From a virus: a DNA stretch of 64,000 nt. The DNA lies in the IMG/VR virus record IMGVR_UViG_3300009545_000002, positions 1-64,000 of that record. One strand, given 5' to 3'. How positions within the stretch are numbered: position 1 is the first letter of the stretch; every line of letters starts with the position of its first letter. The translations under genes and the position numbers were made by a program. The notes beneath the pieces were generated by a model that saw only the letters and a list, made by a program, of their open reading frames with translations, had not been told where the DNA came from and did not search any database. Positions 3,859-59,133 of the stretch are shown here, one piece after another.

Positions 3859-3885
3859 ATTGACTCCTTTACAGTCATTGGGCGG

Positions 3886-43977: not shown

Positions 43978-44190
43978 TCAGAGGGTTGGTGCGCGCGCAC
44001 CGCAGATGAAACACCGCTTGCCCGGCCGCAAATTGCATTTGCCGCAGGGCGCGGAAGGGTCCGGCCCGTCGTCGTCCGGCAGCGCCAGCACGCGCTCGAT
44101 CTCTGCGATCCACTGATCACCGTAGAGCAACAGCGGGCGCGCGGTGCGCAACTCGTCGAGCAGCCTGCGCATCGCTTCGTACTTGATCAT
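43978..44190 (-). CDS. Small zinc-finger protein (70 aa)
   Basis: 70 aa; CGKCNLRPGKRCFICGA at the C-terminus provides a four-cysteine zinc site; N-terminal helices. Two bases separate its start from the upstream gene. Confidence 0.55.
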   Translation of the reverse strand: MIKYEAMRRLLDELRTARPLLLYGDQWIAEIERVLALPDDDGPDPSAPCGKCNLRPGKRCFICGARAPTL

Positions 44191-44191
44191 C

Positions 44192-44437
44192 TCAGTGCTC
44201 CGTCGGTGGGCGCATCGTCCGCATCGTGTCGTCAGGGATCGGGCCCCACACGTCGATACCCGCTCGGATCAAGAGCTCGATGACCTCAGTCACCTGGGCC
44301 CAGTTCTCGAATACCACGACAGGCCCTACCGTGCTCTTGCTTTCGGCGTGCCGTAGCCATTCGAGCGTAACAACTCGCTCTCCGGGGTTGTTCGCGTTTT
44401 CGAGGACTTCGACGGCGGGCGTTAGAGGCGGCTTCAC
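44192..44437 (-). CDS. Small hypothetical protein (81 aa)
   Basis: 81 aa with GTG start overlapping the upstream stop (GTGA). VVTLEWLRHAES and FENWAQVTEVIELLIRAGIDVWG give an alpha/beta pattern. Unknown. Confidence 0.5.
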   Translation of the reverse strand: MKPPLTPAVEVLENANNPGERVVTLEWLRHAESKSTVGPVVVFENWAQVTEVIELLIRAGIDVWGPIPDDTMRTMRPPTEH

Positions 44438-45078
44438 GGCTTGATCCCTTCGAGCAGCAACTTGGCCAGGTTGTCGGCGCCGTAGACGGTCATCGCGGCC
44501 GAGTGCTGGATCTCGGCTTCGAGGCTGAAAAGTTTTCCGACCTTGCCGCCCGGGTGCTTGTTCATGTCGCAGAGGTCCGGTTCGGTGACCACCAGGTATT
44601 TGCGGCAGTTGCCGGGGCGGTGTTCGTAGACGCGGCAGGCGCGGTCTTCGCCGAGGAACACGCAGCGCTGATCCTCGATCGACAGTTCGCGCCAGGTGTC
44701 CGCGTTCTTCGTCGCCTGCCGTGCGAGCCGCGCATAGTCGATCTCGATGCCGTCGTCGTGGGCCAGCATGAGCAGTAGCTGCGCCTCTTGCGGAAAGACG
44801 TCCACGTGCACGTGGCAGCACGCGGCGCAGCCCTTGCGGCATTGCACGTTCGGCGCGTGCTCCGACGTAGCCAGCATGCGGCGCATGCTGTCGTCGACGG
44901 CATTGTGGATCGAGAATGCCACGCTCTCCGGTATCGCCTCGTGCTCGATGCGCACCCACTCTTTGCGGTAGTGCTTGAAGCACTCGAGCGCGACGCGGCG
45001 CTCATCGTCCTGCATTTGCGCCGTGGCTTCCTTGAGCGTGCTGCTGACGTAGCCCAGGGCAGGGTCAGTGAGCTTCAT
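44434..45078 (-). CDS. YkgJ-family cysteine cluster protein
   Basis: 214 aa. CRKGCAACCHVHVDVFPQEAQLL (~80) and CVFLGEDRACRVYEHRPGNCRKY (~140) are the two-part cysteine cluster of the YkgJ/Fe-S-like (PF03692) family, thought to bind zinc or iron. Found in many phages and bacteria; function uncertain. ATGA coupling with the next gene. Confidence 0.8.
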   Translation of the reverse strand: MKLTDPALGYVSSTLKEATAQMQDDERRVALECFKHYRKEWVRIEHEAIPESVAFSIHNAVDDSMRRMLATSEHAPNVQCRKGCAACCHVHVDVFPQEAQLLLMLAHDDGIEIDYARLARQATKNADTWRELSIEDQRCVFLGEDRACRVYEHRPGNCRKYLVVTEPDLCDMNKHPGGKVGKLFSLEAEIQHSAAMTVYGADNLAKLLLEGIKP

Positions 45079-45308
45079 TGCGCCACCCAGACCGCGCGGC
45101 CGACGAATTCCATTTCATCCCACAGCGGCCGGTAGTACGCCTGCCCGCCGGCTGTTTCGCGCGACTCGCCGAGCGCCTGCACGTAGCCCTGACAGCCGAA
45201 CTTCTTCGGCTCGGACACGATGAGCATGCAGGCGGCGAAAGCCCGATTGCGGACGGTCTCTGGATTCAGCTGCACCACGTCGCCGGGCTGTAGGTCACGA
45301 GGTTCCAT
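45075..45308 (-). CDS. Small hypothetical protein (77 aa)
   Basis: 77 aa; LQPGDVVQLNPETVRNRAFAACMLIVSEPK, a pattern recurrent in phage small proteins (an SH3-like beta barrel). Unknown role. Confidence 0.55.
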   Translation of the reverse strand: MEPRDLQPGDVVQLNPETVRNRAFAACMLIVSEPKKFGCQGYVQALGESRETAGGQAYYRPLWDEMEFVGRAVWVAQ

Positions 45309-45310
45309 GG

Positions 45311-45862
45311 TCAGTGCGTTTCATGGCCGGGTGCGTTCTGCATGACGAAGCGGCCGACCCATTCGCCGCCCACAGGTATGGGTTTGAAGGTCGCGACGCG
45401 TTTGGGGCCGCTGATCGGGCACATGCCGGGGAAGCTGCGCTCGGCGGTGTGGACCGTGACCATGATCATCTCGCCGCGGTCCGGGTGGTCCTCGAGCGAG
45501 TCAATTCCTTCGTAGACATCCGGCGACTTCGACGCCAGGTGCCAGGCCTCGGTCAAGTGCACGACCAGCTTGGGCGCTCCGGACGTGCCAGTCATCCCGG
45601 CCAGGTCGGCGCCCATTTTCGAGAGCAACAGGCGGATGAACAGCATCAGCCGATCCTTCGACTCGCCGGTTTCTTGCAGATCGTTCACCAGACTCGATTC
45701 GATGAAGGTCATGTCGCCGAGCGTGCCTGGCTCGTCGCCAAGGCAGACCGCGACCAGCTGCGGTTGGACTTTCTTCTTCTCGTTGAAGATCTCGACGGCC
45801 TTGCCGGCAAAGAAGTCGTAGGCGGCCGTGATGTCGGCGCCCTCGGGTTCGCGCGTGCTCAT
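45311..45862 (-). CDS. Hypothetical protein (183 aa)
   Basis: 183 aa; ITAAYDFFAGKAVEIFNEK, GDMTFIESSLVNDL, LVVHLTEAWHL and VTVHTAERSF. A compact alpha/beta protein of unknown family, likely single domain. Follows the 551-aa gene. Confidence 0.55.
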   Translation of the reverse strand: MSTREPEGADITAAYDFFAGKAVEIFNEKKKVQPQLVAVCLGDEPGTLGDMTFIESSLVNDLQETGESKDRLMLFIRLLLSKMGADLAGMTGTSGAPKLVVHLTEAWHLASKSPDVYEGIDSLEDHPDRGEMIMVTVHTAERSFPGMCPISGPKRVATFKPIPVGGEWVGRFVMQNAPGHETH

Positions 45863-45865
45863 GGT

Positions 45866-47521
45866 TCAGGCCGCCGCGCGTTGGAGCTCTTCGATCGCTT
45901 GGATCACATGGCCCGCGGTGGACTTGACGTAGATCGGTGAGATCCCGGCGGCCTTGATCTTGAACTTCAGCGAGTGCGGGACGCGCTGCGTGATCATGAT
46001 GCAGTGCCGACCACGGTGCGGCGCATAGGTGCCGCTGTCGGGATCGAAGAAGCGCAGGTCGGCGCCGCCGTTGATGGCTGTCTTGACCTGCTGTTCCATG
46101 CTGCCGTTGTTCAGGCCGACGACATCGACTTTGAGAAGGCGCACGCGCTCGGCTTCAGGCTGCGGTTCTGCTGCTGCCTCGGGCGCTGCAGGGACCTCCG
46201 GATATTCCATATCCATCGCCGGCGCGCTCACCGGGCCCAGCTCGGCCTCGACGATCTTGTGCACCGTCGCGCGCATGCTCTGCTCGATCTGCTGCGCGAT
46301 CTGCTGGCTCGTGATCGCGGCCATCGCGCTCATGCGTTCGGCGATGTTGTGCATCACGGACTGCGCGTGCACCGCCAGCAGGTCATCGAGTGCGCGCATG
46401 ACGGTGGCGCCGAAGGCCTGGGCGGCCGCTGAGAGCGCGCGTGGCGGCTGGGTAGGGGGTAGGTGGCCGGTGGCCGGTTCAGGCGCTTGTGCGGCCTGCA
46501 CGGCCTGCTGGGGCTCTGCTTGCGCCTCTGGTTCTGCTGCTTGCGGCTCGGGCTCCGCCTCGGCAGGTGGCGGGTCGGCCGGCAGCAGCCATTCGTTCGC
46601 TGTGCCGTGGGCGATCAGCTTCTCGAGGTAGCCTCCAGTGGTGCCGCTCTGGATGCTTGGGATGCTGCGGCGTCGGTCGATGTCGAGCACCAGTTCCTGC
46701 GCCTCGATGACGAGCCGCGATAACGCGCGAGTGTCGCCTTCGCTGCGCCATCGGTTGACCTGCCGGGCAATGCGCGCCTTCTCCATCGTGGTCCAACGGA
46801 CAGCCCCTTCGCCGGAATAGTCACGGCCCTCGTCGATCGAACGCTTCGGTGTTTGTGTCGGCTTGAGCGGGGTTGCAGGTGCCGCTGCAGGCGCAGGCGT
46901 CTCCTGCTTCGCTGCCTCGAGCTCGAGCTCATGACGTAGCGTCAAGCGCGCCGCGTGCATCCCTGTCTCATACCAGTTCGCGAAGGACTTCGCCTCGATG
47001 TTCTGCCGGCGTCGCTCGGGCGGCAGGACTATCTCTTGCGCACGAAAAAGGGCATCGCGTGGCTTCGCTTTCGAGAGTTCATCACGCGTCAGGTGGGCTT
47101 GCAGGCGCGCGATGCACTCACACAGCTGGCGCTTCTCGGCGTCGTTCCACTGGACCCGCTTGACGGTCTCTGGTTCGCCTTCAGACGCGCGATCGAGCCA
47201 TGGGGTCACCTGAGTGGCGGCAGGCTTGTATTTCGCGCCCTTGGTGACGCCTGCTAGCTTTCGCTGCCTTCGGATGGCTCGGATCGCTGAGACGAACCAT
47301 TGGATCTTCGCGGTTGTCGTCACCTTGCGTTGCCGGTCCGGCGGAAGGACGGTTGCTTGTGCCAGGTGGAACAGTTCGCTGATCGAGCTGATGTTTCCGG
47401 CGCGTTGAAGGCGGATCCCCTCGTCGCGGACGGCATGTACTTCGGCCTCTGTCCAGTAGATTCCCAATCGTCTCTCCTTGTTATGGCCCTCGAAGGGTAG
47501 GAATGTATTGCCAACTGTCAT
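45866..47521 (-). CDS. Large protein with repeated Trp-containing helical modules
   Basis: 551 aa. Three related helical modules start near residues 22 (IYWTEAEVHAVRDEGIRL), 121 (VQWNDAEKRQLCECIARL) and 237 (VRWTTMEKARIARQVNRW), each followed by a VLPPxR/VLDIDRRR-type block about 35 residues later, reminiscent of SANT/Myb-like DNA-binding repeats. Then an Ala/Glu/Pro-rich linker (~300-350), a long helix (~365-420) and a C-terminal alpha/beta domain (INGGADLRFFDPDSGTYAPHRG). Function not known; a DNA-binding or nucleoid-like role is inference. Confidence 0.55.
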   Translation of the reverse strand: MTVGNTFLPFEGHNKERRLGIYWTEAEVHAVRDEGIRLQRAGNISSISELFHLAQATVLPPDRQRKVTTTAKIQWFVSAIRAIRRQRKLAGVTKGAKYKPAATQVTPWLDRASEGEPETVKRVQWNDAEKRQLCECIARLQAHLTRDELSKAKPRDALFRAQEIVLPPERRRQNIEAKSFANWYETGMHAARLTLRHELELEAAKQETPAPAAAPATPLKPTQTPKRSIDEGRDYSGEGAVRWTTMEKARIARQVNRWRSEGDTRALSRLVIEAQELVLDIDRRRSIPSIQSGTTGGYLEKLIAHGTANEWLLPADPPPAEAEPEPQAAEPEAQAEPQQAVQAAQAPEPATGHLPPTQPPRALSAAAQAFGATVMRALDDLLAVHAQSVMHNIAERMSAMAAITSQQIAQQIEQSMRATVHKIVEAELGPVSAPAMDMEYPEVPAAPEAAAEPQPEAERVRLLKVDVVGLNNGSMEQQVKTAINGGADLRFFDPDSGTYAPHRGRHCIMITQRVPHSLKFKIKAAGISPIYVKSTAGHVIQAIEELQRAAA

Positions 47522-47563
47522 CGAGTCAAAGCCGTGAAGATTGCCACGCGCACGTCATGGACG

Positions 47564-47591
47564 AAAAAAAGCCGCCCTCAGATGGGGCGGC
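47564..47591 (-). terminator. Rho-independent terminator after integrase
   Basis: Reading leftward: GCCGCCC-CATCTGA-GGGCGGC then TTTTTTT. Lies between integrase (ends 47684) and the 551-aa gene, isolating integrase expression. Confidence 0.85.
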
Positions 47592-47683
47592 ATCGATCAA
47601 GGGGACAGTGGCACAGCGTAGCACCGGTGAGACTCCTTGGGTTTGTGGCGATTGACTTGAGACGGTCGGACGGTCTAAAGCGA

Positions 47684-48769
47684 TCAGCGCTTCTTCGGTC
47701 CGCGGCCCGACATCGCCACGCTGTCCGGCAGACGCTTGGCGGCCTCGCTCGCGTCGTAGTTGTAGTAGGTGTCGCGCAGCAGCCGGATGTCCTTCGTGCC
47801 CACCGCCTTGGACAGCTCGATCACGTCCAGGAATCTGCACAGGCGCGTGCAGGCCTCGTGCTTCGTGTCGTGGAAGTGCAGGTCGACGATGCCGGCCTGC
47901 TTCACCGCCTTGCGCCATAGCGCATCGCGCTGGCTGTCGTCGATGCCGACGATGTAGGGCTGGTCCGCGGGCATGGTCGCGAGCAGCTGCTCGATCAGGC
48001 GCCGCGCGCTGCCCGAGAGCGGCACGTTGCGGCTCGCGTCGACCGTGGCGCGGCCGCTCTTCGCGCCCTTGCGTCCGCCCTTCTCGAGTGCCGAGACGTG
48101 CACGTAGTCGTCTTCCGGGAAGAAGTCGATCGGGCGCAGGCGCAGCAGTTCGCCCGAGCGCATGCCGGTCTCCAGGCTGAGCAGGAAGCAGGCGCCGACG
48201 CGTGAGGTCAAGGTGCGCAGCTGCGGATCGAACTTGTAGCCGGTGGCGATGTTGATCGCCTCGACTTCCTTGTCGGTGAGCAGCGGCCGCTTGCGCGGCT
48301 TGCCCTTCGGCGGCCGGCGTGCGCCGTGGCAGGGGTTGACGTCGATCCAGCGGCGGTCCTTCACCGCGTAGGTGAACGCGCCGCTCATCAGGTTCATCTC
48401 GCGGTTGACCGTCGCGTCGCTGACTTCCTCGCCGCGGCGCGCCATCCACTCGTTGATGTCGTGCGTCACAATGTCCGCGAGCCGCCGCTCCGCGAGCGGA
48501 TCCAGACACCAATTGTCGATGCGTATCTTGTTCCACTTCGCCGAATCCGTCTTCAGCGCCACCGCATCGAGGTACGCCTCGAACAGCTGGCCGACCGTCA
48601 CGCCGGCCGCCCTGGTCGGCGTCAGCTGGCCGATTTCCTTCTTCCGCTCCATCTTGTCCGCCCAGGCCTGGGCCTCGACCTGGGTGTCGAAGGTGGCGGT
48701 TTTTCGGGTGCCGCCCGGGATGCGGACGGTCACTCGAAAGGTGTCGCCGCGTGGGGTTATTGCTGCCAT
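47684..48769 (-). CDS. int: Tyrosine recombinase (phage integrase) with altered active-site residues
   Basis: 361 aa from ATG 48769 (a longer GC-rich frame was rejected). Residues 1-55 are an AP2-like arm-binding domain; ~58-140 the SAM-like core-binding domain; the rest the catalytic domain. Visible catalytic residues: R204 (TGMRSGELLRL), K230 region, H300, Y335/Y336. Usual HxxR is H-D-T-K (K303), and the usual G-H before the Tyr is G-T (T325). Flanked by terminators and its own upstream gap, so expressed independently. Integration/excision of the phage; activity with these changes is uncertain. Confidence 0.9.
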   Translation of the reverse strand: MAAITPRGDTFRVTVRIPGGTRKTATFDTQVEAQAWADKMERKKEIGQLTPTRAAGVTVGQLFEAYLDAVALKTDSAKWNKIRIDNWCLDPLAERRLADIVTHDINEWMARRGEEVSDATVNREMNLMSGAFTYAVKDRRWIDVNPCHGARRPPKGKPRKRPLLTDKEVEAINIATGYKFDPQLRTLTSRVGACFLLSLETGMRSGELLRLRPIDFFPEDDYVHVSALEKGGRKGAKSGRATVDASRNVPLSGSARRLIEQLLATMPADQPYIVGIDDSQRDALWRKAVKQAGIVDLHFHDTKHEACTRLCRFLDVIELSKAVGTKDIRLLRDTYYNYDASEAAKRLPDSVAMSGRGPKKR

Positions 48770-49126
48770 GGTGTCGTCCTTGGTGTCATCGAGGGGCCTG
48801 CCCTGGCACCAGCGCCAACCTGGAAATCGTGGTGTCAGCGCTGGTGCCAGGGCTACCGACACTTTACCCGATTCCCCTGGGGCCAGGCCGGGCCCACTGG
48901 GGCCGGGTGACACCAAGACGGGCCGCACCGGACATGAAAAAAGCCCCGTAAATCAACGACTTACGGGGCTTTTTGCTTGCTTACCCTGGTGCCCAGGAGA
49001 AGCACCCAAAGTGAGTGTTTATGCGGCCTGCAGAGAATTTGGTGTCGGACTTGACACCACAGAGTGAAAAGTAGGACTCGATCTCGACTCGAAGCCCACT
49101 CCGGACTCACCTGGTCCGACTCCAAA
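48770..49126. other. Integrase upstream region: promoter, terminator, possible attP
   Basis: 357 bp without a convincing gene. It holds the bidirectional terminator at 48937-48974, the inverted repeat GGTGTC-GGACTT-GACACC (49041-49058), and several GGTGTC/GGCACC and GACTCGA-type direct repeats at 48780-48860 and 49075-49120. Such short repeats around int are typical of integrase/excisionase arm sites, so attP may be here or at the other side of int; the core cannot be fixed without a host junction. Confidence 0.4.
48937..48974. terminator. Bidirectional terminator between xis-like and int genes
   Basis: AGCCCCGTAA-ATCAACGAC-TTACGGGGCT, a perfect 10-bp stem, with A6 before and T5 after. On the minus strand it ends the early leftward operon before int. 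Confidence 0.9.
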
Positions 49127-49441
49127 TTAGCTTTCGACCTTGTTCCTCGGGCGGCCGATTTTGGCCTTGGGGGACTCGTACTCGTGGGCCGAGATCCACG
49201 TCAGGATCGCCGAGCGCCGCCACCTTGGACGGCTCTTTCCCTTGCCCGTCCCGGTGTCCAGATGGATCGCTTTCGGGAAGGTCGGCGAGTGCGCAAAGTG
49301 CTCGGTCACCGAGCGCGGCTCGCAGTTGATCAGGGCGGCCACGTCGTCGGTGTTGAGCAGCGGGTCCTCGATTTCGGCCCGGCGCAGCTCCTTGGCGATG
49401 ACCTTGCCGAGGGCTTCGATTTCACTCGCGTCCATGTTCAT
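49127..49441 (-). CDS. Excisionase/AlpA-like HTH protein
   Basis: 104 aa from ATG 49441 (AAGGGG upstream). LLNTDDVAALINCEPRSVTEHF is a winged-HTH/AlpA-type recognition segment, followed by basic RPRWRRSAILTWI. Position directly before int suggests excisionase or regulator of int. ATG overlaps the HNH gene stop. Confidence 0.65.
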   Translation of the reverse strand: MNMDASEIEALGKVIAKELRRAEIEDPLLNTDDVAALINCEPRSVTEHFAHSPTFPKAIHLDTGTGKGKSRPRWRRSAILTWISAHEYESPKAKIGRPRNKVES

Positions 49442-49854
49442 GCTTCCCCTTCGGTTGGGAAAAGGTCTGTCGTGCGCGCCTGCAGCTTCCGCGTCATGTA
49501 CGCGCTGGTGATGTGATGTGGTTGATCGTAGGCCAGGTGATGCCGCTGGCACCAGGCCCGCAAATTCTCGGGATCGCAATGCTCTGGCACGTGATCCAGA
49601 TGGGCGATCGTCAGCACGATGCGGACGATGCGCTCGTCCTTCTCGATCGACTCCGCCAGCTCGAAGTCGAAGGTGCCCGGCGTGCTCGGGTGCACGATCT
49701 GCTTGAACAGCCCATCGCGCCAGACACCGACGGCAAGGTGTCGCGCGCCGCATCCTTCCCATTCGCAGCGGTAGCCGGCGCGGCTCATGATCTGCACGCG
49801 GACGTCTTGCCAGTCGGCGGGGTAGCGGGCTTTGTTCTCGGGCTTGATCGGCAT
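49438..49854 (-). CDS. HNH endonuclease-like protein
   Basis: 138 aa. YRCEWEGC (zinc half-site), LTIAHLDHVPEHCDPENLRAWCQRHHLAYD (HNH core: the D-H pair, N of ENLRAWC, H of RHH, second CxxxH). Free-standing HNH proteins in phages serve packaging or homing; it lies two genes downstream of the TIGR-Tas gene, which lacks a nuclease of its own, a possible but unproven link. Confidence 0.75.
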   Translation of the reverse strand: MPIKPENKARYPADWQDVRVQIMSRAGYRCEWEGCGARHLAVGVWRDGLFKQIVHPSTPGTFDFELAESIEKDERIVRIVLTIAHLDHVPEHCDPENLRAWCQRHHLAYDQPHHITSAYMTRKLQARTTDLFPTEGEA

Positions 49855-49863
49855 GGGCAGGTC

Positions 49864-50085
49864 TCAGGTCGGGTCGGTGTGGGTGATGGTTCGTGAAGCC
49901 TTGAGCGCGGCGTGAATCTTGGTCAGCGCCTTGTCGTACTGCTCGAGCCAGTAGCGGGCATCGCCGTCGACGCGGCCCATTGCGTCACTGTGGCTGCGCA
50001 GCAGGATCGCCCGGTCGTGCTGGATGACATCCTTCGCGGCGAGCAGGGCGCGCCTGATGGTGGCATGGGCGGGTCTGTCTTTCAT
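49864..50085 (-). CDS. Small helical hypothetical protein (73 aa)
   Basis: 73 aa (MKDRPAHATIRRALLAAKDVIQHD). Its only Shine-Dalgarno is GAGAGCGCC at the last array repeat (plus-strand 50086-50094), directly before the ATG. Unknown function. Confidence 0.6.
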   Translation of the reverse strand: MKDRPAHATIRRALLAAKDVIQHDRAILLRSHSDAMGRVDGDARYWLEQYDKALTKIHAALKASRTITHTDPT

Positions 50086-50896
50086 GGCGCTCTCTCTTTA
50101 CGGTGCTCTCGCGCAAGGTGGCTCGCTCAGCTGAGGTGGTGCTCTCTTGGGATATGGCTCGCACAGGATCTTTGGTGCTCTCGCGCAGGGGTGGCTCGCT
50201 CACTGGGAGGTGGTGCTCTCGCAGATCGTGGCTCGCTCGCTTGACATGGCGCTCTCGCCCTTTTGGCTCGCTCGTCTGTCATGGTTCTCTCCCGCAGGGG
50301 TGGCTCGCTCCAGGGGTAAGGTTCTCTCGGTGAACTGGGCTCGCTCTCAGCTGATGGTTCTCTCTGAGCCGCTGGCTCGCTCCGTGGGATTGGTGCTCTT
50401 CTTCGCTATGGCTCGCTCATTGTCATTGGGGCTCTCCGTACTCATGGCTCGCTCATGGGTTTAGGTGCTCTCGCGCTGAGTGGCTCGCTCATGGACTCGT
50501 GGTTCTCTCTGAGTTCCTGGCTCGCTCCCGATACGTGGTGCTCGTGGTGCTCTTCGAGACGATGGCTCGCTCATCACCAATGGTGCTCTCGGACAGAATG
50601 GCTCGCTCTTGCAGCATGGTTCTCTGCTGGTTGACGGCTCGCTCAACTCGTATGGTTCTCTCGCACTTTGTGGCTCGCTCATGAGCTCTGGCTCTCTTTG
50701 GGCGTCTGGCTCGCTCGTTGTAGATGGGTCTCTCCGGATGAATGGCTCGCTCCGTTCCATTGGTTCACTCACGCTTTCAGGCTCGCTCGGCAGGTAGGGT
50801 GCCCTCTGAAGACTTGGCTCGCTTGCGATCGATGGTGCTCTCGCTAACCGGGGCTCGCTCTTGCAACTTGGTGCTCTCTCACTCAACGGCTCAATG
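50086..50896 (-). repeat. TIGR array 1 (tandem interspaced guide RNA array), 43 spacers
   Basis: Two short repeats alternate every ~18 bp (36-bp unit). On the plus strand they are R = GGCTCGCTC (nearly invariant) and L = GGTGCTCTC (variable at bases 3-6: GGTTCTCTC, GGCGCTCTC, GGGGCTCTC, GGTGCCCTC). Between 50102 and 50896 are 43 unique spacers: 38 of 9 nt, four of 10, one of 8. Examples: gcgcaaggt, agctgaggt, gcagatcgt, gtctgtcat, attgtcatt, atcaccaat, gttgtagat, gcgatcgat. Most spacers end in T, so the repeat may really be TGGNNCNCTC. L is duplicated without spacer at 50537-50554. Leftward transcription with the host operon is assumed, giving GAGCGAGCC/GAGAGCACC repeats in the RNA. Confidence 0.9.
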
Positions 50897-51733
50897 CTTC
50901 GGCTCGCGCAGATGCGCGTGCCCCTGGATCGCGATCGGGTACGGCAGCGGCGGCTCTTTGCCGAAGTGCGTTCGGTACCAGGTCGCATGAAAGTCAGACA
51001 GGAACTGCTTCACCGCGTAGCGCTGCGCCCGCATGTCGATCTGACCTGGTGGCAGCTTGCCGGCGGCGTAGTGCTTGTGCGCCTCCGTCGTCTTGGCCAC
51101 GCGCGCGAGTCCGGCCGCCGCGGCCGCGGTGTTGCCCAGCGCCTCGTTGCGCTCGACTTCATAGGCCTTGCGCTGGCGATAGAGAGCGCCGTACACGCAT
51201 CCGGGCTGGTTGCTGAATTTCAGGAAGGACTGCCCGACCTTCCAGCACAGTACCTTCAGCTTGGCATTGAAGGGACGCTTCGTCTTCTTCTCCCACTTCG
51301 TGGTCGGATCGAGTCCGGCGAAGCGCCAGATATGGCCGACCGTCGGCGCCTTCGTGATATCGATGTGGGCCAGCAGTCCGGCTGCGATCACCGGCCCGAT
51401 GCCGTAGACCTCGTGCAGCCATGGTCCCATCGCATGCTGGCGCGAATAGACGTCGAGCGCGCGCTTGATCTCGTTCTCCATCGTCTGCAGCTGCTTGAAC
51501 AGCCAGTCGAGCATCGCATGTCCGTCGCCCTGATCGGCTGACTGGTCGATGCTGCGCATCTGCGCGGACGATGCGATGCGGTAATCCTGGAGCTGGTAGT
51601 AGGCGTCGACCATGAAGCGGATCTCTTGGCCCTTCAGCGTCTTTGCCGCCTGCAGCACGTCGCGCGCTGGCCTGGCAATGGACTCGAGGGAGATCGGTGC
51701 CTCGGGGATGCCTTTGTCTTCGTCGTCGCTCAT
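50891..51733 (-). CDS. tasA: TasA-like protein: Nop/IS110-C-terminal-domain protein of a TIGR-Tas system
   Basis: 280 aa from ATG 51733 (an upstream ATG at 51766 has no RBS). Residues ~20-105 are helical with a coiled-coil segment (HAMLDWLFKQLQTMENEIKRAL). GIGPVIAAGLLAHI at 111-124 is a helix-hairpin-helix, followed by W136 and AGLDP 139-143, the pattern of the IS110/IS116/IS902 transposase C-terminal domain (Transposase_20), which is structurally related to the Nop domain of box C/D RNPs and of Tas proteins. The DEDD catalytic domain of IS110 is absent; no RuvC or HNH motif is seen, so this fits TasA rather than TasR/TasH. Its RBS is an array repeat (GAGAGGACC). It should bind processed ~36-nt tigRNAs; function (silencing, defence against rivals, regulation) unknown. 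Confidence 0.82.
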   Translation of the reverse strand: MSDDEDKGIPEAPISLESIARPARDVLQAAKTLKGQEIRFMVDAYYQLQDYRIASSAQMRSIDQSADQGDGHAMLDWLFKQLQTMENEIKRALDVYSRQHAMGPWLHEVYGIGPVIAAGLLAHIDITKAPTVGHIWRFAGLDPTTKWEKKTKRPFNAKLKVLCWKVGQSFLKFSNQPGCVYGALYRQRKAYEVERNEALGNTAAAAAGLARVAKTTEAHKHYAAGKLPPGQIDMRAQRYAVKQFLSDFHATWYRTHFGKEPPLPYPIAIQGHAHLREPKH

Positions 51734-51740
51734 TGGGTGT

Positions 51741-52262
51741 GGTCCTCTCGTGGTGATTGGCTGCATGCCAGCCCGGCATGCTGGGTCGCTCTACTTCGAT
51801 GGGTGCTCTCGGCGTGGGTGGCTCGCTCAGGTTCGCTGGTTCTCTCTCAGTGTTTGGCTCGCTCGTTCACTATGGTTCGCTCCGATCGATGGGCTCGCTC
51901 AACACTGATGGTCCACTCCCACTTGTTGGCTCGCTCGGGGATGCTGGTTCTCTCGACCGCAATGGCTCACTCACTGCCTCTGGTGCTCTCGGTAAGTCTG
52001 GCTCGCTCAGTCGCAATGGTCCGCTCGCGAAACCTGGCTCGCTCGTCACGCATGGTTCGCTCGTTGAATATGGCTCGCTCGCAATGCTTGGTCCTCTCGC
52101 TCTGTGCGGCTCGCTCCGCGCTCTCGGTGCTCTCCGGTCTGTTGGCTCGCTCGACCATCTTGGTGCTCTCAGCGAATACGGGCTCGCTCGTTGTGCATGG
52201 TTCCCTCACGGCTCGGTGGCTCGCTCCGGCTTCGTGGTTCTCTCGTGATTTTTGGCTCGCTA
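51741..52262 (-). repeat. TIGR array 2, 26 clear spacers
   Basis: Same alternating repeats as array 1, upstream of tasA. From R at 51783 to the terminal R at 52254-52262 there are 26 spacers: 23 of 9 nt, three of 10. Examples: ggcgtgggt, gttcactat, cgatcgatg, gaccgcaat, agtcgcaat, gtcacgcat, gcaatgctt, gtgattttt. L is more degenerate here (GGTCCTCTC, GGTTCGCTC, GGTCCACTC, GGTTCCCTC). A degenerate L at 51741-51749 (GGTCCTCTC) doubles as the tasA RBS; the stretch 51750-51782 is a decayed unit. The terminal R overlaps the stop codon of the upstream gene. Confidence 0.9.
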
Positions 52263-52703
52263 CTGCGGCGCCGCCAGCAAGTTCGCGGTGCTGACGTGCT
52301 CGAGGACTGTCCGGCCGTTGGGCAGCAGGATCTGACCCAAGAACGCGCCTTCGAAAGTCAGGATGCCGACTTCCACCGCAGTGACCTGGCCCTTGATCCA
52401 GTCGCGCAGCACCGAGCAGACCGAGACCTGGGCCTGGTCCAGCGCGCGCCGCTCGTGCTCAATCTTCGTTCGCCGGTGTCGGCTCGGGTTGTACGGGTAC
52501 TCCTTGAGCCAGGCCGCGGCGTATCCGCGGTAGCTGGCCTTCACGGTCACGTCGCGAGTGCGATAGGTGAACTGCACGATCAGCTCGCCGAGCTCGTTGT
52601 CCGTCATCGTGCCGAAGCGCGAGCAGCCGAAGCGCGTCAAGACCTTGCGGATCTCGTCGAGCGCGCCGGCGCCCGAGGTCGCGCCTTCATACGGCAGGGC
52701 CAT
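52260..52703 (-). CDS. Hypothetical protein (147 aa) upstream of TIGR array 2
   Basis: 147 aa. ALDEIRKVLTRFGCSRFGTMTD, then VQFTYRTRDVTVKASYRGYAAAWLKE, a pattern common in phage proteins of the recombination region. Its TAG stop lies inside the last repeat of array 2. Unknown function. Confidence 0.65.
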   Translation of the reverse strand: MALPYEGATSGAGALDEIRKVLTRFGCSRFGTMTDNELGELIVQFTYRTRDVTVKASYRGYAAAWLKEYPYNPSRHRRTKIEHERRALDQAQVSVCSVLRDWIKGQVTAVEVGILTFEGAFLGQILLPNGRTVLEHVSTANLLAAPQ

Positions 52704-52718
52704 CGCCAGCTCCCGCGT

Positions 52719-53429
52719 TCATGGCTGGCCGATGGCGCCGCTGGTGGTCGTGCCATGCCGCTCGACGAACTCGTCGGTCGCGTCCTTCGGCTTGCGCGAC
52801 TTCTTGTCGGCGGGCTTGTTGATCGGCACGCCGTTGACCGCGCCAGAGCTCTCGGCAAACGGCCAGTTCGGATCGCCGCCGCTCTCTTCGCTGGGTGCGG
52901 AATCGAGCATCGCCTGGCTCTCGGCCGACGGCACCATCATCGCCTGCACTTCGTGCTTGAGCATCGCCGACAGCTTGCCGACCGCGCGTTCATCCGGCTG
53001 CGATCGTTGGACTCGCCAGGTCACTTTGACCGTGCCGCCCTGCTTGCACTCGAGCCTGAAGTTGTTCGCCTTGCAGTCGGTGATTTTCACGTTCGACTTG
53101 CCGGCCAGGCCGTACTCGAAGGTCAGCGTGCACCCTTCTTGATCACCGTGCCATTTCAGGACATCGAGCTCGGGGAAGCGCAGGTCGGGCGCGTCGTTCG
53201 GCTCCTCGAGCTCGAGCGGCACCTGGTCCGGGCGCGGCTGCGGCGTCTTCGACTTGAAGTAGAGCCAGGACTTCAGGCGCGGGTTGAACAGCTTCAGCAC
53301 GTCGTTGTGCATTTCCTTCGACAGCTTGATGTCGATGGCCGGCACCTTTTCGTCGCCGTGGTTCTCGTCGCGCAGGTTGATGTGCTCGATGATGACGGGC
53401 GTCAGATCGGGGAGGGCAAATCGGTTCAC
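52719..53429 (-). CDS. Hypothetical early protein (236 aa)
   Basis: 236 aa with GTG start and AAAGGAGT upstream. RFALPDLTPVIIEHINLRDENHGDEKVPAIDI, then beta-rich LTFEYGLAGKSNVKITDCKANNF. Acidic C-terminal tail with Lys run. The order with RecT/RecE-like genes resembles phage recombination clusters, where this family is of unknown role. Confidence 0.65.
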   Translation of the reverse strand: MNRFALPDLTPVIIEHINLRDENHGDEKVPAIDIKLSKEMHNDVLKLFNPRLKSWLYFKSKTPQPRPDQVPLELEEPNDAPDLRFPELDVLKWHGDQEGCTLTFEYGLAGKSNVKITDCKANNFRLECKQGGTVKVTWRVQRSQPDERAVGKLSAMLKHEVQAMMVPSAESQAMLDSAPSEESGGDPNWPFAESSGAVNGVPINKPADKKSRKPKDATDEFVERHGTTTSGAIGQP

Positions 53430-53455
53430 TTTGGGACTCCTTTGATTGGGGCGAT

Positions 53456-54535
53456 TCAGACTTCTTGCAGGACGATGCGCTTCGACTCGATGAGGCCCCG
53501 GTTGACCTCGCCGAGCACTGCAATCCCGAGCTGACTGATTCCCTTGTTGGCCGACTGGGCCTTCGAGATTGCATCCATGAGCTTGTGCGCGCCGATCTTG
53601 CGCATGCGCGCATTGAGAGTCGGGTTCTCGACGCCGCCCTCGATGCGGCGATCGAGGTAGTCCAAGGCCTTGATCAGCTCGCCGAAGATCGGCGCGCCGG
53701 GCGTGATGTCTTGCATGCAGCACAGCACGGCTTCGCAGCGCCGCATGTCGCGCTTCGCCATGCCGTAGACGTAGGCGATCGCGGCCAGCTGGTTGGCCCC
53801 CTTCGCTGCGCGAGCCACCACGTCGATGCCGAGTGCGCATAGGGCCTGGTCCAGCTGAATCGCGATCGGGTCTTCGCCTGTCACGAGCGCACGATATTTG
53901 TCGGAGGCATGCACGCCGCTGCGGTTGATGTTGATCGCCGCGAAGATGCGCGCTTCGTGGTTGATGCCCTGGCTCTCGAAGACAAGGCAGTTCAACTCGG
54001 TCAACTCGACTCGCCGCTGTGAAGCCATCCAGCGGTTTTGCCCGTCGACGATATAGAATTCGTCGCCGCGCTGCGCGACGGTCAGCGCGCCGAATGCAAC
54101 CATGTCCAGCGCGGCGGCGATCTGATCGACTTTCGTCTGGCTGACGGTGTTGCGCTGGTAGGTCGTGCAGATGCTGAGCTTCGCCTTGTGCAAGCGCATC
54201 GGACGCAGTTCGCCGGTGATGGGGAGCCACTCGCGCTTGAGTGCATCGGCTGCCGAGTCGAGGGAGTGCTCAACGTAGGCCTCGTGCTGCGGCAAAGCGG
54301 GCGGTCCGGAGTCTGAAAGCTGCTGCACGTGCGGCAGCTTGAGTAGCCTCTGCCGGCGCCAGAACCCAGCAGCGCCAGACACCGTCGAGAGCCATTTGCC
54401 GAGTCCGGGATTCGAGGCCAGCATCTCTTTCAGGTAGTCGCGCGAGGTCCAGTGAGCGCGAGCGCCCTCGGGGATCCGCGCGCAGACTCGGCGCAGTTCA
54501 GCTTCCGCTGTTTGTTGCCGGCGAGCTGTGTTCAT
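53456..54535 (-). CDS. ParB-like (DUF6551-type) DNA-binding protein
   Basis: 359 aa. SICTTYQRNTVSQTKVDQIAAAL then FYIVDGQNRWMASQRR, the DGQ(H/N)R core of ParB/Srx-type domains in which this residue pair holds the nucleotide. Helical C-terminus. Overlaps the next gene by 38 nt. Phage versions may act as nucleases, CTPases or partition-like regulators. Confidence 0.65.
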   Translation of the reverse strand: MNTARRQQTAEAELRRVCARIPEGARAHWTSRDYLKEMLASNPGLGKWLSTVSGAAGFWRRQRLLKLPHVQQLSDSGPPALPQHEAYVEHSLDSAADALKREWLPITGELRPMRLHKAKLSICTTYQRNTVSQTKVDQIAAALDMVAFGALTVAQRGDEFYIVDGQNRWMASQRRVELTELNCLVFESQGINHEARIFAAININRSGVHASDKYRALVTGEDPIAIQLDQALCALGIDVVARAAKGANQLAAIAYVYGMAKRDMRRCEAVLCCMQDITPGAPIFGELIKALDYLDRRIEGGVENPTLNARMRKIGAHKLMDAISKAQSANKGISQLGIAVLGEVNRGLIESKRIVLQEV

Positions 54536-55463
54536 CTTGTTCGCTCCGGTTGATGATGGTCAGCGTGTTGAGCACGTTGCGAAGGAAGGGCATCCCCATG
54601 TGCAAGTTAGCTGCGACTCCTATCCGCTGCTCGTGGGTGAGAACGCGCAGCAGCCCATCGGCCGACACATTGGCCCTTGCAAGCACGCGAAGCGCGTCAG
54701 CCACATTCAGCAGTCGCTCGGCAGTCTCGCGGGCGTGCTGGCGTTCTTCTTCCAGCGTGCGCCGAATGGGGACTACCACCGATGAATGCTGGCCAGGCGC
54801 AAGCGCGGCGCGCCGCTGCGCCATGGCTTCTTCGCGTGATGCCTGCAGCGCGGCCTCACGGTCCTTCAGGCGATCACGCGAAGCGAGCCATGCTGATTCG
54901 ATCGTCAGCTCGCCGGCAACCACGCGGACGGCCAGGTCAGGCGACACCTTGACGACGCGCCATAGCTTCTTCTGCGTGGCTTCGCACAACGTGCGCTTGC
55001 CGAGATAGTCTTTCGCACGGTGCTCGATGTCGAGAGCGCATGGGTTTTGATTCCACTGGACTACGCGGGCGCGAAGGTCGCGGCTCGACTTGCCTTCACG
55101 CTGCGCCCAATCGAGCATTTCGTCGGCTACGTCCCCAGGCAACGCAGCGACCTCTGCATGATGGGTGAATGAAAGAACTTGCCGGCGCCGGCAAGTTTCT
55201 TTGAAGGCCCTTGCGGTTGTGGCCGCATGAGCGCAAGTCTGAAACGACGGCCCGCGCCAGTCCGGCGCTTCGGTCAATGCCTTGCGGTTGCCATAGGTGC
55301 GATCACCATAGGCCCAGAGGTCGCCGAGCTGCCATTGGTGCCGATTGTGCTGTTCGCTGATCTGGTGAAGCGCGGCGAGCCAATCTTCTTCGGGCATCGG
55401 CTCCTCTGGCGGGAGCCATCCGTTTTCGGTGAAGGTACCCATATCCATCCTAGGCCCAGTCAT
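54498..55463 (-). CDS. Hypothetical protein (321 aa)
   Basis: About 321 aa; start is either ATG 55463 or ATG 55448. WQLGDLWAYGDRTYGNRKAL and FTHHAEVAALPGDVADEMLDWA resemble a ParB/plasmid-partition-associated helical protein; the C-terminal half is a long charged helix (REEAMAQRRAALAPG). No enzyme motif. Confidence 0.55.
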   Translation of the reverse strand: MTGPRMDMGTFTENGWLPPEEPMPEEDWLAALHQISEQHNRHQWQLGDLWAYGDRTYGNRKALTEAPDWRGPSFQTCAHAATTARAFKETCRRRQVLSFTHHAEVAALPGDVADEMLDWAQREGKSSRDLRARVVQWNQNPCALDIEHRAKDYLGKRTLCEATQKKLWRVVKVSPDLAVRVVAGELTIESAWLASRDRLKDREAALQASREEAMAQRRAALAPGQHSSVVVPIRRTLEEERQHARETAERLLNVADALRVLARANVSADGLLRVLTHEQRIGVAANLHMGMPFLRNVLNTLTIINRSEQDEHSSPATNSGS

Positions 55464-55785
55464 TGTCAAAAGTGATCACCACGTCGCCGACGATCTCGTG
55501 CGTCGTGCCGGGCACGCAGTTCTGCCAATAGAGCTCGGTCGCCTTCCGGTTGACCGGCTTGAGCGCCTTGGTCGGGCGCTGCTCGAAGTGGCCCGGGCTG
55601 TGCTCGATCCACTCGACTTCGTAGCCCTGATCGTCGACGCACATCACCTGCAGCGGCGGGCCCAGGTGGCGCAGGCTGACCACGTCGATCGTCCGTGCGC
55701 CTATCAGTCTGCGGATCTCGTCATGCGGAATCGGCTTGTCGAAATTCACCTCGGTGCCGTCGGTGCGGATGAGGCGCCGGCTCAT
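55450..55785 (-). CDS. Hypothetical protein (111 aa)
   Basis: 111 aa; SRRLIRTDGTEVNFDKPIPHDEIRRLIGA and GYEVEWIEHSPGHFEQRPTKALKPVN. A DUF3846-like or small phage alpha/beta fold is suspected. ATG overlaps the RecT stop. Confidence 0.6.
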   Translation of the reverse strand: MSRRLIRTDGTEVNFDKPIPHDEIRRLIGARTIDVVSLRHLGPPLQVMCVDDQGYEVEWIEHSPGHFEQRPTKALKPVNRKATELYWQNCVPGTTHEIVGDVVITFDNDWA

Positions 55786-56921
55786 GCTTCGCCCCACTCC
55801 TGCTTGTAGACGGCGGCCAGCTGCTCGAGCTCTTCGGGATCCAGCACGCCGCGCGCCTGGTCGAGCACCAGCGCCGCCGTCTCGGCGGATGTCGCGGTGC
55901 GGATGCCGTACTCGCACTCGGCGAAGGCGCGGACCGACTTTTCAGCGCCGGCGGTCTGCTGCTCTTGCTGGCTATGCTCGCGCTCCGCCGGCTCCTCGAC
56001 GGCTGCGCCGCCGCTGCCGCCCTTGCGCGGCCGCGTGGCGCGCTGGCGCGGCGCCGGGGCATCGGGCGCCGGCGGCTGTGGCGGCGGATCGATCTCGCCC
56101 GTGTCCTCGTCGATCGCGGCGAACGGCGGCGGGACGTACGAATTCGAGATCGCGTCCTGCAGGCCCAGCTGCTGCACGCCGCGCGAGGCCGCGTCGTCCA
56201 GCGCGAGCGCGCTCGCCAGCTCCGGCGACTTCGGCAGGTATTTGCAGATCCGGCGCAGCACCGTCTTGCGCGCCATCTCGTCCCAGTCGGTGTCCCAGGG
56301 GGTCTGCTTGCCGAAGCGGGACGCGGTCTGCACGTTCTGCGACCGCGCCTTGATGCGCTGGATGTCGGCGAGCGTCATGAGCTCGGCGTGCGAGCCGCCG
56401 CCCTTCAGGCGCGCCACGGCGTAGACCAGCCGCACCGGGCCGGCATCGCCGTCGAGGAACGGCCGGTGCACGATGCCTGGCTCGGTGCCCCACTGAACCT
56501 CGAACTGGTCGTTCGTGCGCACCAGGTGCGCCGAGATCGACTCCACCAGGCCGGAGCGGCGCACGAGCTCGAGCAGCCCCTGGTAGCCGATCTGCAGCGT
56601 GCAGATGTAGACGCCCTCGCGGTTCTTGTACGGGATCAGGTAGCACTCGCCCATCAGCCCCGGCCGCAGCCCGAGCTGCGAGGCCTGGATCACGCACGAG
56701 AACACCGAGATCGGCGGGCACTCGGCGAGCCGCGGGTTCAGCGAGAAGCACGTCAGCGCGATGCGCATCATCGTGTCGGCGTTGAGGTGCCGCGGCAAGG
56801 CGCGGGCGATCTCGTTCCGGCGCGCTTCGAGCATGGTGCGGAAGTTGTCCGCGCCGCCGCGTCGCGTGACTTCACCGGCGGCGACGTTCTTCAGCGTGGT
56901 GGTCGGGAGGGGAGCGTTCAT
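55782..56921 (-). CDS. recT: RecT single-strand annealing protein
   Basis: 379 aa. ALTCFSLNPRLAECPPISVFSCVIQASQLGLRPGLMGECYLIPYKNREG, then LQIGYQGLLELVRRSG and KTVLRRICKYLPKS, the full RecT signature. The C-terminus after ~290 is a Pro/Ala-rich linker and acidic helix, which in RecT-type proteins often contacts SSB. Anneals strands made by the RecE-like nuclease encoded upstream. Confidence 0.95.
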   Translation of the reverse strand: MNAPLPTTTLKNVAAGEVTRRGGADNFRTMLEARRNEIARALPRHLNADTMMRIALTCFSLNPRLAECPPISVFSCVIQASQLGLRPGLMGECYLIPYKNREGVYICTLQIGYQGLLELVRRSGLVESISAHLVRTNDQFEVQWGTEPGIVHRPFLDGDAGPVRLVYAVARLKGGGSHAELMTLADIQRIKARSQNVQTASRFGKQTPWDTDWDEMARKTVLRRICKYLPKSPELASALALDDAASRGVQQLGLQDAISNSYVPPPFAAIDEDTGEIDPPPQPPAPDAPAPRQRATRPRKGGSGGAAVEEPAEREHSQQEQQTAGAEKSVRAFAECEYGIRTATSAETAALVLDQARGVLDPEELEQLAAVYKQEWGEA

Positions 56922-56927
56922 CAGGTG

Positions 56928-57143
56928 TCATTCCTTCATGAAGGTTGTATTTGTCGGCAGTCCTGGCCATGAGCTGGGCTCGTGCGCGCGCTGCCGCAGC
57001 ATCGCGTCGGCCATTTCGTAAGCGGCCTCGGCGACCTCGTCCAGGGTGATGTCCCCCTTGTAGGCCACCAGAAGCCCCTGCATCGCTTTGCCGGCAAAGT
57101 AGTCGCGCAGGTCGACCAGCATTCCGACCGGAGCTGGGTGCAT
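56928..57143 (-). CDS. Small helical protein between recE-like and recT
   Basis: 71 aa from ATG 57143. GMLVDLRDYFAGKAMQGLLVAYKGDITLDEVAEAAYEMADAML is a known small phage family often next to recombination genes. Function unknown. Confidence 0.6.
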   Translation of the reverse strand: MHPAPVGMLVDLRDYFAGKAMQGLLVAYKGDITLDEVAEAAYEMADAMLRQRAHEPSSWPGLPTNTTFMKE

Positions 57144-57148
57144 GGCGG

Positions 57149-58087
57149 TCAATCGCCGCGGTAGGTGAAGGCCCAGCCGGGCAGGTCGATCAGCTGGATC
57201 TCATCTCCGTAGCCTGGCCAGACGCCTCGGCGCCGGCAGGCCGCGTATCGATCGAGGTTTCGCCGGTAATCTTCACGGCCTTGCTCGCGGCTGCGATCGT
57301 CGAGCATCATCGCCTGCGCCAGAAACGGCCACTCGGTCTCCACCGCCACGAACACGAAGGCCAGCACGTCGACCTTCGCCGCGATCTCGTAGCCGTCGGA
57401 GTAGAAGGCGTCCTGCACGTGGTAGCGCTTGCGTGCGACCTGGCGGCGAAACTCGTTCGCGCTCGCGTCGGCGTAGGTCTTGACGTCGAGCAACCCGACG
57501 CGGCTGCCGCCGAAATCGGCCACCCAGTCCGGGCGGCAGCGGCACGCCTCGCCGGTCTCCTGGTCGATCCACATGGCCGAGACCTCGGAGCGGCCGTGCC
57601 CGAGCGCCTCGGCCACGTCCGGCAGCCGGCGCATGTTCTGCGCCTGGCGCATCGCGGTCTCGTACTGCGCGGCCGTGATGATCACCTTGCCGCTGTGGCG
57701 CTGGCCGAACTCGCTCCACCAGGCCATTGCGGCCACGCTCTCCGAGCTCGGGTTTTTGGCGTTCCACTGCGCCTCGGTCGGCCGGCGCGGCGCGTTCGGC
57801 GGCACGGTGATGTAGCGGGAAAGGAAGGCCTCGGGCTCGAGCAGTGCGCAATGCGCCAGCTGGCCCTCGAGCTGACCGGCACGTTCTTTACGTGGCGGCC
57901 GCATCGGATCGAGGTAACCCGCGAAATAGTGCGCAGGACTGCGGTTTATCAAGTCGAGTCCCGACTTCGAGATGCCGGGCATCGCGTGATACACATCGAT
58001 GTCGATGCCGTGGGCAATACCCGGGAAAGTACTCGGTACCAGGTCGGCGGCAGTGGCCACATGCAGGCGTTCGACGACTTCGTTCAT
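57149..58087 (-). CDS. RecE/PD-(D/E)XK exonuclease-like protein (DUF3799)
   Basis: 312 aa from ATG 58087. HAMPGISKSGLDLINRSPAHYF is the N-terminal motif of DUF3799 nucleases; CRCRPDWVADFGGSRVGLLDVKTYADAS gives the PD-(D/E)XK core (D then DVKT), and FRRQVARKRYHVQDAFYSDGY the Q/Y motif. Digests one DNA strand to supply RecT. Confidence 0.85.
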   Translation of the reverse strand: MNEVVERLHVATAADLVPSTFPGIAHGIDIDVYHAMPGISKSGLDLINRSPAHYFAGYLDPMRPPRKERAGQLEGQLAHCALLEPEAFLSRYITVPPNAPRRPTEAQWNAKNPSSESVAAMAWWSEFGQRHSGKVIITAAQYETAMRQAQNMRRLPDVAEALGHGRSEVSAMWIDQETGEACRCRPDWVADFGGSRVGLLDVKTYADASANEFRRQVARKRYHVQDAFYSDGYEIAAKVDVLAFVFVAVETEWPFLAQAMMLDDRSREQGREDYRRNLDRYAACRRRGVWPGYGDEIQLIDLPGWAFTYRGD

Positions 58088-58239
58088 GTCATGACTCCCG
58101 CGAGATAGCCGAGACCGAAAAAGACCAGGTAGATGATCGCGATGGTGAGTCTCGAGCACTGCCGGCTGATCGCGTCGGGCCGCACCTGCTCGACGGCGCA
58201 GCTGTAGTCGACGTCGTTCGCGTTCGGGCGCCCGCTCAT
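58084..58239 (-). CDS. Small membrane protein (51 aa)
   Basis: 51 aa with C-terminal membrane helix (LTIAIIYLVFFGLGYLAGVM). ATGA coupling to both neighbours. Unknown role. Confidence 0.55.
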   Translation of the reverse strand: MSGRPNANDVDYSCAVEQVRPDAISRQCSRLTIAIIYLVFFGLGYLAGVMT

Positions 58240-58553
58240 GACTGCCCTCTTCGGGCATTGATGACGCGTGCCAGGCAAAGCCAGGCCCGGTCAGGCGTGC
58301 GGTGCGGCCCCTGGCAGGGCACGTGCTCTCCCCCGATGAAGCACTCGTAACTGCTGCCGACCAGGCGCACCACGGCACTCGGCTCGATGCTCAGGACGAG
58401 CGGTTTGAACTTCTGTCGGCGCGGCCGTAAATGCTTGTCTTCGGTGATCTTGAAGCGCGAGTCATACGCGTTGTCATGGCTGGCAATGGCTTGCGCAAGC
58501 GAGTCTGTGCTGTCGCGCACAGACGTCCCACTGATCGTCTCCATCGACGTCAT
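58236..58553 (-). CDS. Hypothetical protein, first gene of leftward early operon
   Basis: 105 aa if started at ATG 58553; ATG 58544 is also possible. IEPSAVVRLVGSSYECFIGGEHVPCQG suggests a small beta fold. The 5' coding part contains the inverted repeat GTCTGTGC/GCACAGAC (58503-58510 / 58517-58524), a possible hairpin or operator near the promoter. Confidence 0.5.
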   Translation of the reverse strand: MTSMETISGTSVRDSTDSLAQAIASHDNAYDSRFKITEDKHLRPRRQKFKPLVLSIEPSAVVRLVGSSYECFIGGEHVPCQGPHRTPDRAWLCLARVINARRGQS

Positions 58554-58790
58554 CCCGTTGTTGTTGGTAGGGGTCGAGTCAATTCGATGACTAGACCGTG
58601 ACAACCGTAGCAACAGAATGCCCGCAGTCAAGACCTCCACGATCGTCGCGGATATTCGAGGCCTGATGACAGCGTCGATCGATCCGCGTATAAGCGCGCG
58701 CGACCGCAGCGGGCGCCCTTCGCACTACGAGCATCAGGGCTTTCACGCTGGGTCTTGACGGGCGGGAAAGCGTTACTACGTTTGCAGGGG
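58554..58790. promoter_or_regulatory. Divergent early promoter region
   Basis: 237 bp between the leftward and rightward early operons. Rightward, TTGACG (58755-58760) and TACGTT (58777-58782; 16-bp spacing) lie only ~9 bp before the GTG of the HTH gene, which would give a leaderless or near-leaderless mRNA, as for lambda cI. No clear leftward promoter could be fixed. Operators are expected here but I see no strong tandem sites. Confidence 0.35.
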
Positions 58791-59114: not shown

Positions 59115-59133
59115 CCGGTCAACGGAGGTATTG

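What the first reader, a model, noticed from the sequence alone, without database searches (positions are those of the whole stretch)
50086..52262. Phage-encoded TIGR-Tas system: two dual-spacer arrays flanking a tasA-like gene
Seen: alternating 9-nt repeats (GGCTCGCTC and GGTGCTCTC-type) every ~18 bp with about 9-nt unique spacers, 43 in one array and 26 in the other, in 36-bp units; between them a 280-aa protein with an IS110 C-terminal/Nop-like helix-hairpin-helix (GIGPVIAAG, then AGLDP) and no DEDD, RuvC or HNH motif. Known: TIGR arrays are processed to 36-nt guides with two short spacers, bound by Tas proteins with a Nop domain, found largely in phages and parasitic bacteria. The match of unit length, spacer length and partner fold is specific. 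A nuclease-free Tas suggests RNA-guided binding without cutting, such as silencing of rival phages or of host genes.
Basis: partly seen in the sequence, partly recalled or inferred. Interest (0 to 1): 0.97.

Follow-up and report, generated by a model that had tools for sequence, protein, structure and literature searches.

The report
Nuclease-free TIGR-TasA system in a phage
This temperate phage carries a compact RNA-guided DNA-binding system (one protein and two long arrays of paired short guides) of the TIGR-Tas kind described in 2025; it belongs to a large group in environmental phages, and what its guides aim at is still unknown.

Summary
On the minus strand, two arrays of 36-nt units (edge GAGCGAGCC[A/G], ~8-nt spacer A, loop GAGAGnACC[A/G], ~8-nt spacer B) flank a 280-aa gene. 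They hold 27 and 46 repeats, about 35 guides. The protein's closest solved relatives are TasR and TasH, by sequence profile (E 4e-24, 3e-14) and by fold (top ten Foldseek hits). No nuclease domain was found, so it is a TasA. TIGR-TasA with dual-repeat arrays was published in 2025, so this is a new member, not a new kind.

New here:
- Arrays lie on the tasA strand in 161 of 162 cases, often starting flush with a stop codon.
- Box C covaries between edge and loop in 102 of 102 unambiguous loci.
- In partly diverged arrays, A-loop-B pairs stay together while order and neighbours change; units also duplicate and diverge.

No natural target was found: spacer pairs show no excess matches in own contigs, sister phages or sampled host DNA. 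TasA most likely binds DNA without cutting. Competition between mobile elements is my best guess for its role, but that is inference.

The parts
51783..52262 (-). TIGR array 2, upstream of tasA: 27 alternating edge (GAGCGAGCC) and loop (GAGAGnACC) repeats, about 13 guide units. It begins with a truncated edge repeat (CGAGCCA) flush with the TAG stop of ORF 52703..52260
51763..51781 (-). Perfect 7-bp inverted repeat (GCATGCC-GGGCT-GGCATGC) between array 2 and tasA, no T-run; role unknown
   Evidence: read; not reported as a terminator
50891..51733 (-). tasA, 280 aa (ATG at 51733; a longer 291-aa reading starts at 51766). Nop/IS110-C domain, no nuclease
50086..50890 (-). TIGR array 1, downstream of tasA: 46 repeats, about 22 guide units. 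It begins GCCG directly after the tasA TGA and ends against the start codon of ORF 50085..49864; one irregular unit near 50527-50572
52260..52703 (-). 147-aa ORF of unknown function (phrog_17260), same strand, directly upstream of array 2; apparent operon neighbour
53456..54535 (-). 359-aa ParB-like protein (phrog_1033, DUF6551), same strand, upstream; a clear relative was found near only one other tasA locus and a weak one near another, so the association is not conserved in this clade

Best explanation
This is a TIGR-TasA system. The two arrays are transcribed on the minus strand, probably together with tasA and its upstream neighbours, and processed within the edge repeats into about 35 guide RNAs of about 36 nt. 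A TasA dimer binds each guide. Spacer A pairs with one strand of a target and spacer B with the other over an adjacent 16-18 bp site, and the complex stays on the DNA without cutting it. The identity, array geometry, strand and guide unit are shown or strongly supported by sequence. Processing and two-strand DNA binding are inferred from experiments on other Tas systems (PMC12045711). The biological role is a guess: interference with other mobile elements by blocking transcription or replication about 0.5, regulation of host or own genes about 0.25, help with DNA bending, segregation or integration about 0.1, other about 0.15.
For: Array geometry and significance. Profile search of solved structures: TasR 3.7e-24, TasH 2.8e-14, IS621 7.6e-7. 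AlphaFold2 model pLDDT 87; Foldseek top ten hits are TasR (9mty) and TasH complexes, with IS110-type recombinases far weaker. Array strand equals tasA strand in 161 of 162 cases, and 44 of 92 loop-first arrays start flush with a stop codon followed by a truncated edge repeat. The third base of box C covaries between edge and loop, r = 0.95, 53 A-type and 49 non-A loci, none discordant, 21 mixed. In partly diverged arrays, A-loop-B pairs are shared 59 times against 29 for B-edge-A; leaving out the two comparisons sharing long blocks (L024/L057, L029/L107), 37 against 8. The record carries terminase, capsid, portal and tape-measure genes and an integrase.
Against: No RNA data. No natural target found in any tested place. 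Repeats start with GAG rather than the UG box D of TasR arrays. No terminator-like site was reported after either array.
Confidence: 0.9

Rival explanations
1. The gene is a degraded IS110 transposase and the repeats are unrelated tandem DNA.
For: Pfam names the domain Transposase_20; PHROGs calls the family transposase.
Against: No N-terminal DEDD domain. Nearest structures are TasR and TasH, not IS110. Protein and array co-occur in more than 80 loci on the same strand. The protein is conserved and open.
Confidence: 0.02
2. The arrays are repetitive coding sequence (ERAxxxESTxxx-type repeats, 36 bp = 12 codons).
For: Long open frames run through parts of the arrays.
Against: Across 1,963 distinct units all three sense frames contain stops (0.16, 0.30 and 0.70 per unit), close to a letter-shuffle null (0.21, 0.32, 0.65); repeat spacing varies from 15 to 21 nt in about 8% of steps.
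Confidence: 0.02
3. The TasA-guide complex regulates the phage's own genes or the host's genes rather than rival elements.
For: TasA lacks a nuclease; some guides are kept in different phages, as expected if a host target is conserved.
Against: Best own-contig matches equal mispaired and wrong-geometry controls. 42 guides of a Latescibacterota locus show no excess in 2.0 Mb of that chromosome, 7 near-matches against 3-10 for shuffled pairs; 7 Halomonas guides show none in 0.4 Mb. Host coverage was partial and the window's host is unknown.
Confidence: 0.25
4. TasA bends DNA or assists phage integration or partition, with guides choosing the site.
For: Suggested by Faure et al. (PMC12045711); integrase, RecT and a ParB-like gene lie nearby.
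Against: No gene other than tasA is conserved beside the arrays in this clade; the ParB-like gene has a clear relative near only one other locus; about 35 fast-changing guides are more than one attachment site needs.
Confidence: 0.1

Closest known systems
TIGR-TasA with dual-repeat array (Flavonifractor plautii type; Faure et al. 2025, PMC12045711)
   Same: Solo Nop-domain protein; alternating edge and loop repeats; two short spacers per ~36-nt unit; truncated edge at array start; phage carriage
   Different: Repeat sequence GAGCGAGCC / GAGAGnACC; 8-nt effective spacers (10-nt repeats), where the F. plautii array has 18 nt of spacer per guide; about 35 guides in two flanking arrays, where 5-15 units was given as most common
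TIGR-TasH (Salicola phage CGphi29) and TIGR-TasR
   Same: Same C-terminal fold and guide layout; best solved-structure matches; the TasH array also has 16 nt of spacer per guide
   Different: They carry HNH or RuvC nucleases and cut DNA; this protein has none
IS110 / IS621 / ISCro4 bridge-RNA recombinases
   Same: Related Nop-like C-terminal RNA-binding domain (7.6e-7 and 1e-5 by profile)
   Different: No DEDD catalytic domain; short-guide arrays instead of a single bridge RNA
Type IV and V-M CRISPR systems
   Same: Mobile-element-borne guide arrays, interference without target cleavage (functional analogy only, as drawn by Faure et al.)
   Different: Unrelated protein; here 9-10-nt repeats and split guides

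Membership tests
TIGR-Tas (TasA subtype) | Nop / IS110-C domain effector related to Tas proteins | tested here: met
TIGR-Tas (TasA subtype) | No HNH or RuvC nuclease domain | tested here: met
   no other domain in Pfam or PHROGs; all-helical model of 280 aa with a disordered N-terminus
TIGR-Tas (TasA subtype) | Adjacent array of two alternating 8-12-nt repeats with ~9-nt spacers, 36-nt unit | tested here: met
   4,042 of 4,408 repeat-to-repeat steps in the clade are exactly 18 nt
TIGR-Tas (TasA subtype) | Box C/D motifs shared by edge and loop and covarying between them | tested here: met
   CCA/CCG third base r = 0.95, 0 discordant loci. Box D is GAG here, not UG; the authors report that the motifs can diverge but almost always covary
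[quoted passage not shown]
   both window arrays; 44 of 92 loop-first arrays in the clade have this flush with a stop codon
[quoted passage not shown]
   no terminator-like site near either array end; array 1 runs up to the next gene
TIGR-Tas (TasA subtype) | Array transcribed and processed to 36-nt tigRNA bound by Tas | not testable with these tools
   needs small-RNA sequencing
TIGR-Tas (TasA subtype) | Two spacers pair with opposite strands of adjacent target DNA | tested here: inconclusive
   no excess of matches in the expected geometry anywhere tested; A-loop-B is nevertheless the conserved unit
IS110 transposase | N-terminal DEDD RuvC-like catalytic domain | tested here: not met
CRISPR-Cas | ~25-36-nt repeats with a Cas effector | tested here: not met
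   repeats are 9-10 nt; no Cas family among the neighbours scanned

The most novel reading that the evidence does not exclude
In this clade the guide repertoire may be built mainly by duplication of 36-bp units or blocks followed by spacer change and selection, rather than by copying pieces of targets as CRISPR does. That would explain both the duplicated, diverged units inside arrays and the lack of recognisable source sequences.
Probability: 0.2. Interest if true: 0.8.

Novelty: new member of a known kind. Interest (0 to 1): 0.5.

Why it matters
What nuclease-free Tas proteins do, what their guides target and how the arrays grow are stated open questions of the 2025 description. This window anchors a clade with an easily searched repeat signature, giving about 2,000 guides from more than 110 phage contigs plus isolate genomes. 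That makes the questions testable by comparison: it already shows which pair of spacers is the unit kept by evolution, that units duplicate and diverge, and that self-targeting was not detectable. It also shows that an existing phage protein family annotated 'transposase' (phrog_4285) contains TasA proteins.

Tried and rejected
(1) Own-phage targets: not supported; best own-contig matches equal controls. For the window, one 15/16 match against one per ten shuffles: not convincing.
(2) Targets in the fetched sister-phage loci: exact A+rcB pairs 27 against 15-21 for shuffled pairs over gaps -3 to 12; the small excess is partly one low-complexity guide (GTGCTGCTG/AAGCCACAG) counted four times, and gaps 0-2 total 7 against about 4 expected. 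Not convincing.
(3) Targets in host chromosomes: Latescibacterota 2.0 Mb and Halomonas 0.4 Mb, negative.
(4) Viral-contig scans with four guides kept in several phages. ATGGCCTTG/GGATAAGGA gave 41 gap-0 hits, mostly unrelated genes that happen to encode DKDKA. GCACTCACT/GAACGTAGA and GTTGTTGAT/GACGTTTTC gave scattered hits. AGAAAGTCG/[AG]GCGTTCAA hit one family of 29 near the start of a capsid-like gene, but no other guide hits that family; unproven.
(5) Mycobacteriophage guides against phage records: by my estimate of the scoring, the two pooled queries could not have reported an 18-nt match, so they say nothing; two single queries found no mycobacteriophage match.
(6) Conserved partner genes: none beyond tasA.
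(7) Plasmid records: no relative.
(9) One search was a malformed alignment and is not used.

Full report
Observation. Reading the window directly and with a tandem-repeat finder confirms two arrays of short alternating repeats around an ORF. On the minus strand the repeats read GAGCGAGCC and GAGAGnACC, mostly 18 nt apart, each followed by a conserved A or G and about 8 variable bases. A chain model counts 27 repeats at 51783-52262 and 46 at 50086-50896, with scores of 248-356 against at most 25 in shuffled windows. The gene between them, 51733-50891, encodes 280 aa. Array 1 starts at the base after the tasA stop codon, and array 2 at the base after the stop codon of the upstream ORF, both with a truncated edge repeat.

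The protein. Pfam finds only the IS110-type C-terminal domain above its cutoff. Against solved structures the single sequence matches TasR (2.4e-12) and TasH (1.4e-8). A 31-member profile gives TasR 3.7e-24, TasH 2.8e-14, IS621 7.6e-7 and ISCro4 1e-5. The AlphaFold2 model (pLDDT 87) is all helical, and its ten best Foldseek matches are TasR and TasH complexes. It is a Tas protein without a nuclease, hence TasA in the published scheme (PMC12045711). TM-scores are moderate (about 0.5-0.7), in line with 18-24% identity.

The phage. The record is an IMG/VR virus contig of 73,387 bases. It carries terminase, capsid/protease, portal, tape-measure and tail proteins, plus integrase, RecT and a ParB-like protein. 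The system lies between the integrase and the recombination genes. The last 9.4 kb outside the window hold no further array. No near match to 44000-60000 exists among phage records, and the host is unknown.

The clade. From these and the first relatives I parsed 2,086 regular units, 1,863 distinct, on 113 contigs, median 15 and up to 80 per contig. The window, with 32 regular units, is on the high side. TasA homologues of 30-56% identity are present in 86 of the fetched loci. Relatives lie in 17 genome records, including isolates of Halomonas and Acidobacteriaceae and several MAGs, many with recognisable arrays. Arrays and tasA share a strand in 161 of 162 cases. No other neighbouring gene is conserved, so TasA plus array appears to be the whole module.

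Evidence for the guide unit. The base after CC is A in both repeats or non-A in both repeats in 102 of 102 unambiguous loci, r = 0.95. This is the edge-loop covariation expected if both repeats bind the same site in a symmetric dimer. Arrays of related phages differ in order and content, yet particular spacer pairs recur. Pairs joined through the loop repeat are shared 59 times, and pairs joined through the edge repeat 29 times. Leaving out the two comparisons that share long blocks, the counts are 37 and 8. These counts include near-duplicate contigs, so they are not independent events. Together with the truncated edge at array starts, this makes GAGCGAGCC the edge repeat and A-loop-B the heritable guide, matching published processing.

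How arrays change. Within loci, 29 unit pairs differ at 3 or fewer of 16 spacer positions among 24,247 comparisons, including tandem copies and a duplicated block in L045 with diverged flanks. Duplication and divergence is therefore one route of growth. Whether new spacers are also captured from targets is unknown. Closely matching units show fewer differences per site in spacers than in repeats (0.050 and 0.086), but the pairs were chosen by spacer similarity, so this is only suggestive of constraint on guides.

Targets. I used the published geometry (spacer A, then the reverse complement of B, gap 0-2). Own contigs, sister phages, parts of two host chromosomes and the window's own genome show no convincing excess over mispaired controls. 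The power is limited: most contigs are only partly held, hosts were sampled in part, and 16-bp sites occur by chance in large collections, as the viral scans showed. Absence of targets here does not show that none exist.

Rivals. A coding repeat is made very unlikely by stop codons in every frame. An IS110 remnant is made very unlikely by the missing catalytic domain, the structural ranking and the conserved array partnership. CRISPR is excluded by repeat size and protein.

Mechanism and verdict. Shown or strongly supported: array structure, strand, guide unit, Tas identity, no nuclease domain, phage carriage. Inferred from characterised relatives: co-transcription, processing to 36 nt, dimeric guide complex, two-strand binding without cleavage. 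Guessed: the role. Blocking of competing mobile elements seems likeliest, because arrays are large and fast-changing, self-matches are not in excess and the carriers are mostly phages.

Noticed in passing
L150:2784-3121 and L340-L344 (mycobacteriophages SarFire, Ohno789, Rhynn, Marsha, Rufus, Pelly): A TasA-like gene annotated 'transposase', HTH protein or hypothetical is preceded by about five palindromic units with conserved stems, CCA and CCCA motifs and variable stretches in the spacer positions: they look like the published stem-loop TIGR arrays, in phages that grow on M. smegmatis. tblastn found 74 Mycobacterium phage records. Faure et al. cite a mycobacteriophage review, so this may be known to them.
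   Followed up: partly
L151:2620-2880 and 3725-3860 (Gordonia phage Morrissey): Similar stem-loop units on both sides of a TasA-like gene (gp42).
   Followed up: partly
L340, L341, L342, L344: In four of the mycobacteriophages examined a gene annotated Cas4 exonuclease lies directly or one gene downstream of the TasA-like gene. Cas4 acts in CRISPR adaptation elsewhere; here it may simply be a phage recombination exonuclease.
   Followed up: no
L345-L412 (29 clustered contigs): The guide GAAAGTCG/GCGTTCAA, shared by L061, L092 and L105, matches with gap 1 a conserved site near the start of a capsid-like gene in one phage family. No other guide matches the family, so this may be chance. The same spacer A occurs with a different B in Halomonas locus L136.
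   Followed up: partly
L017, L070, L080: Apparent 450-490-aa TasA ORFs look like open frames running in from the upstream array rather than fused domains.
   Followed up: partly
L145 (Woesearchaeota MAG): A TasA relative of about 40% identity in an archaeal MAG, with no GAG-type array detected by the chain model.
   Followed up: no
window 38602-38675 (-): A tRNA gene, the only Rfam match in the window.
   Followed up: no
window 59488-59758: A 45/90-bp tandem repeat followed by a CTGATTC heptamer repeat.
   Followed up: no
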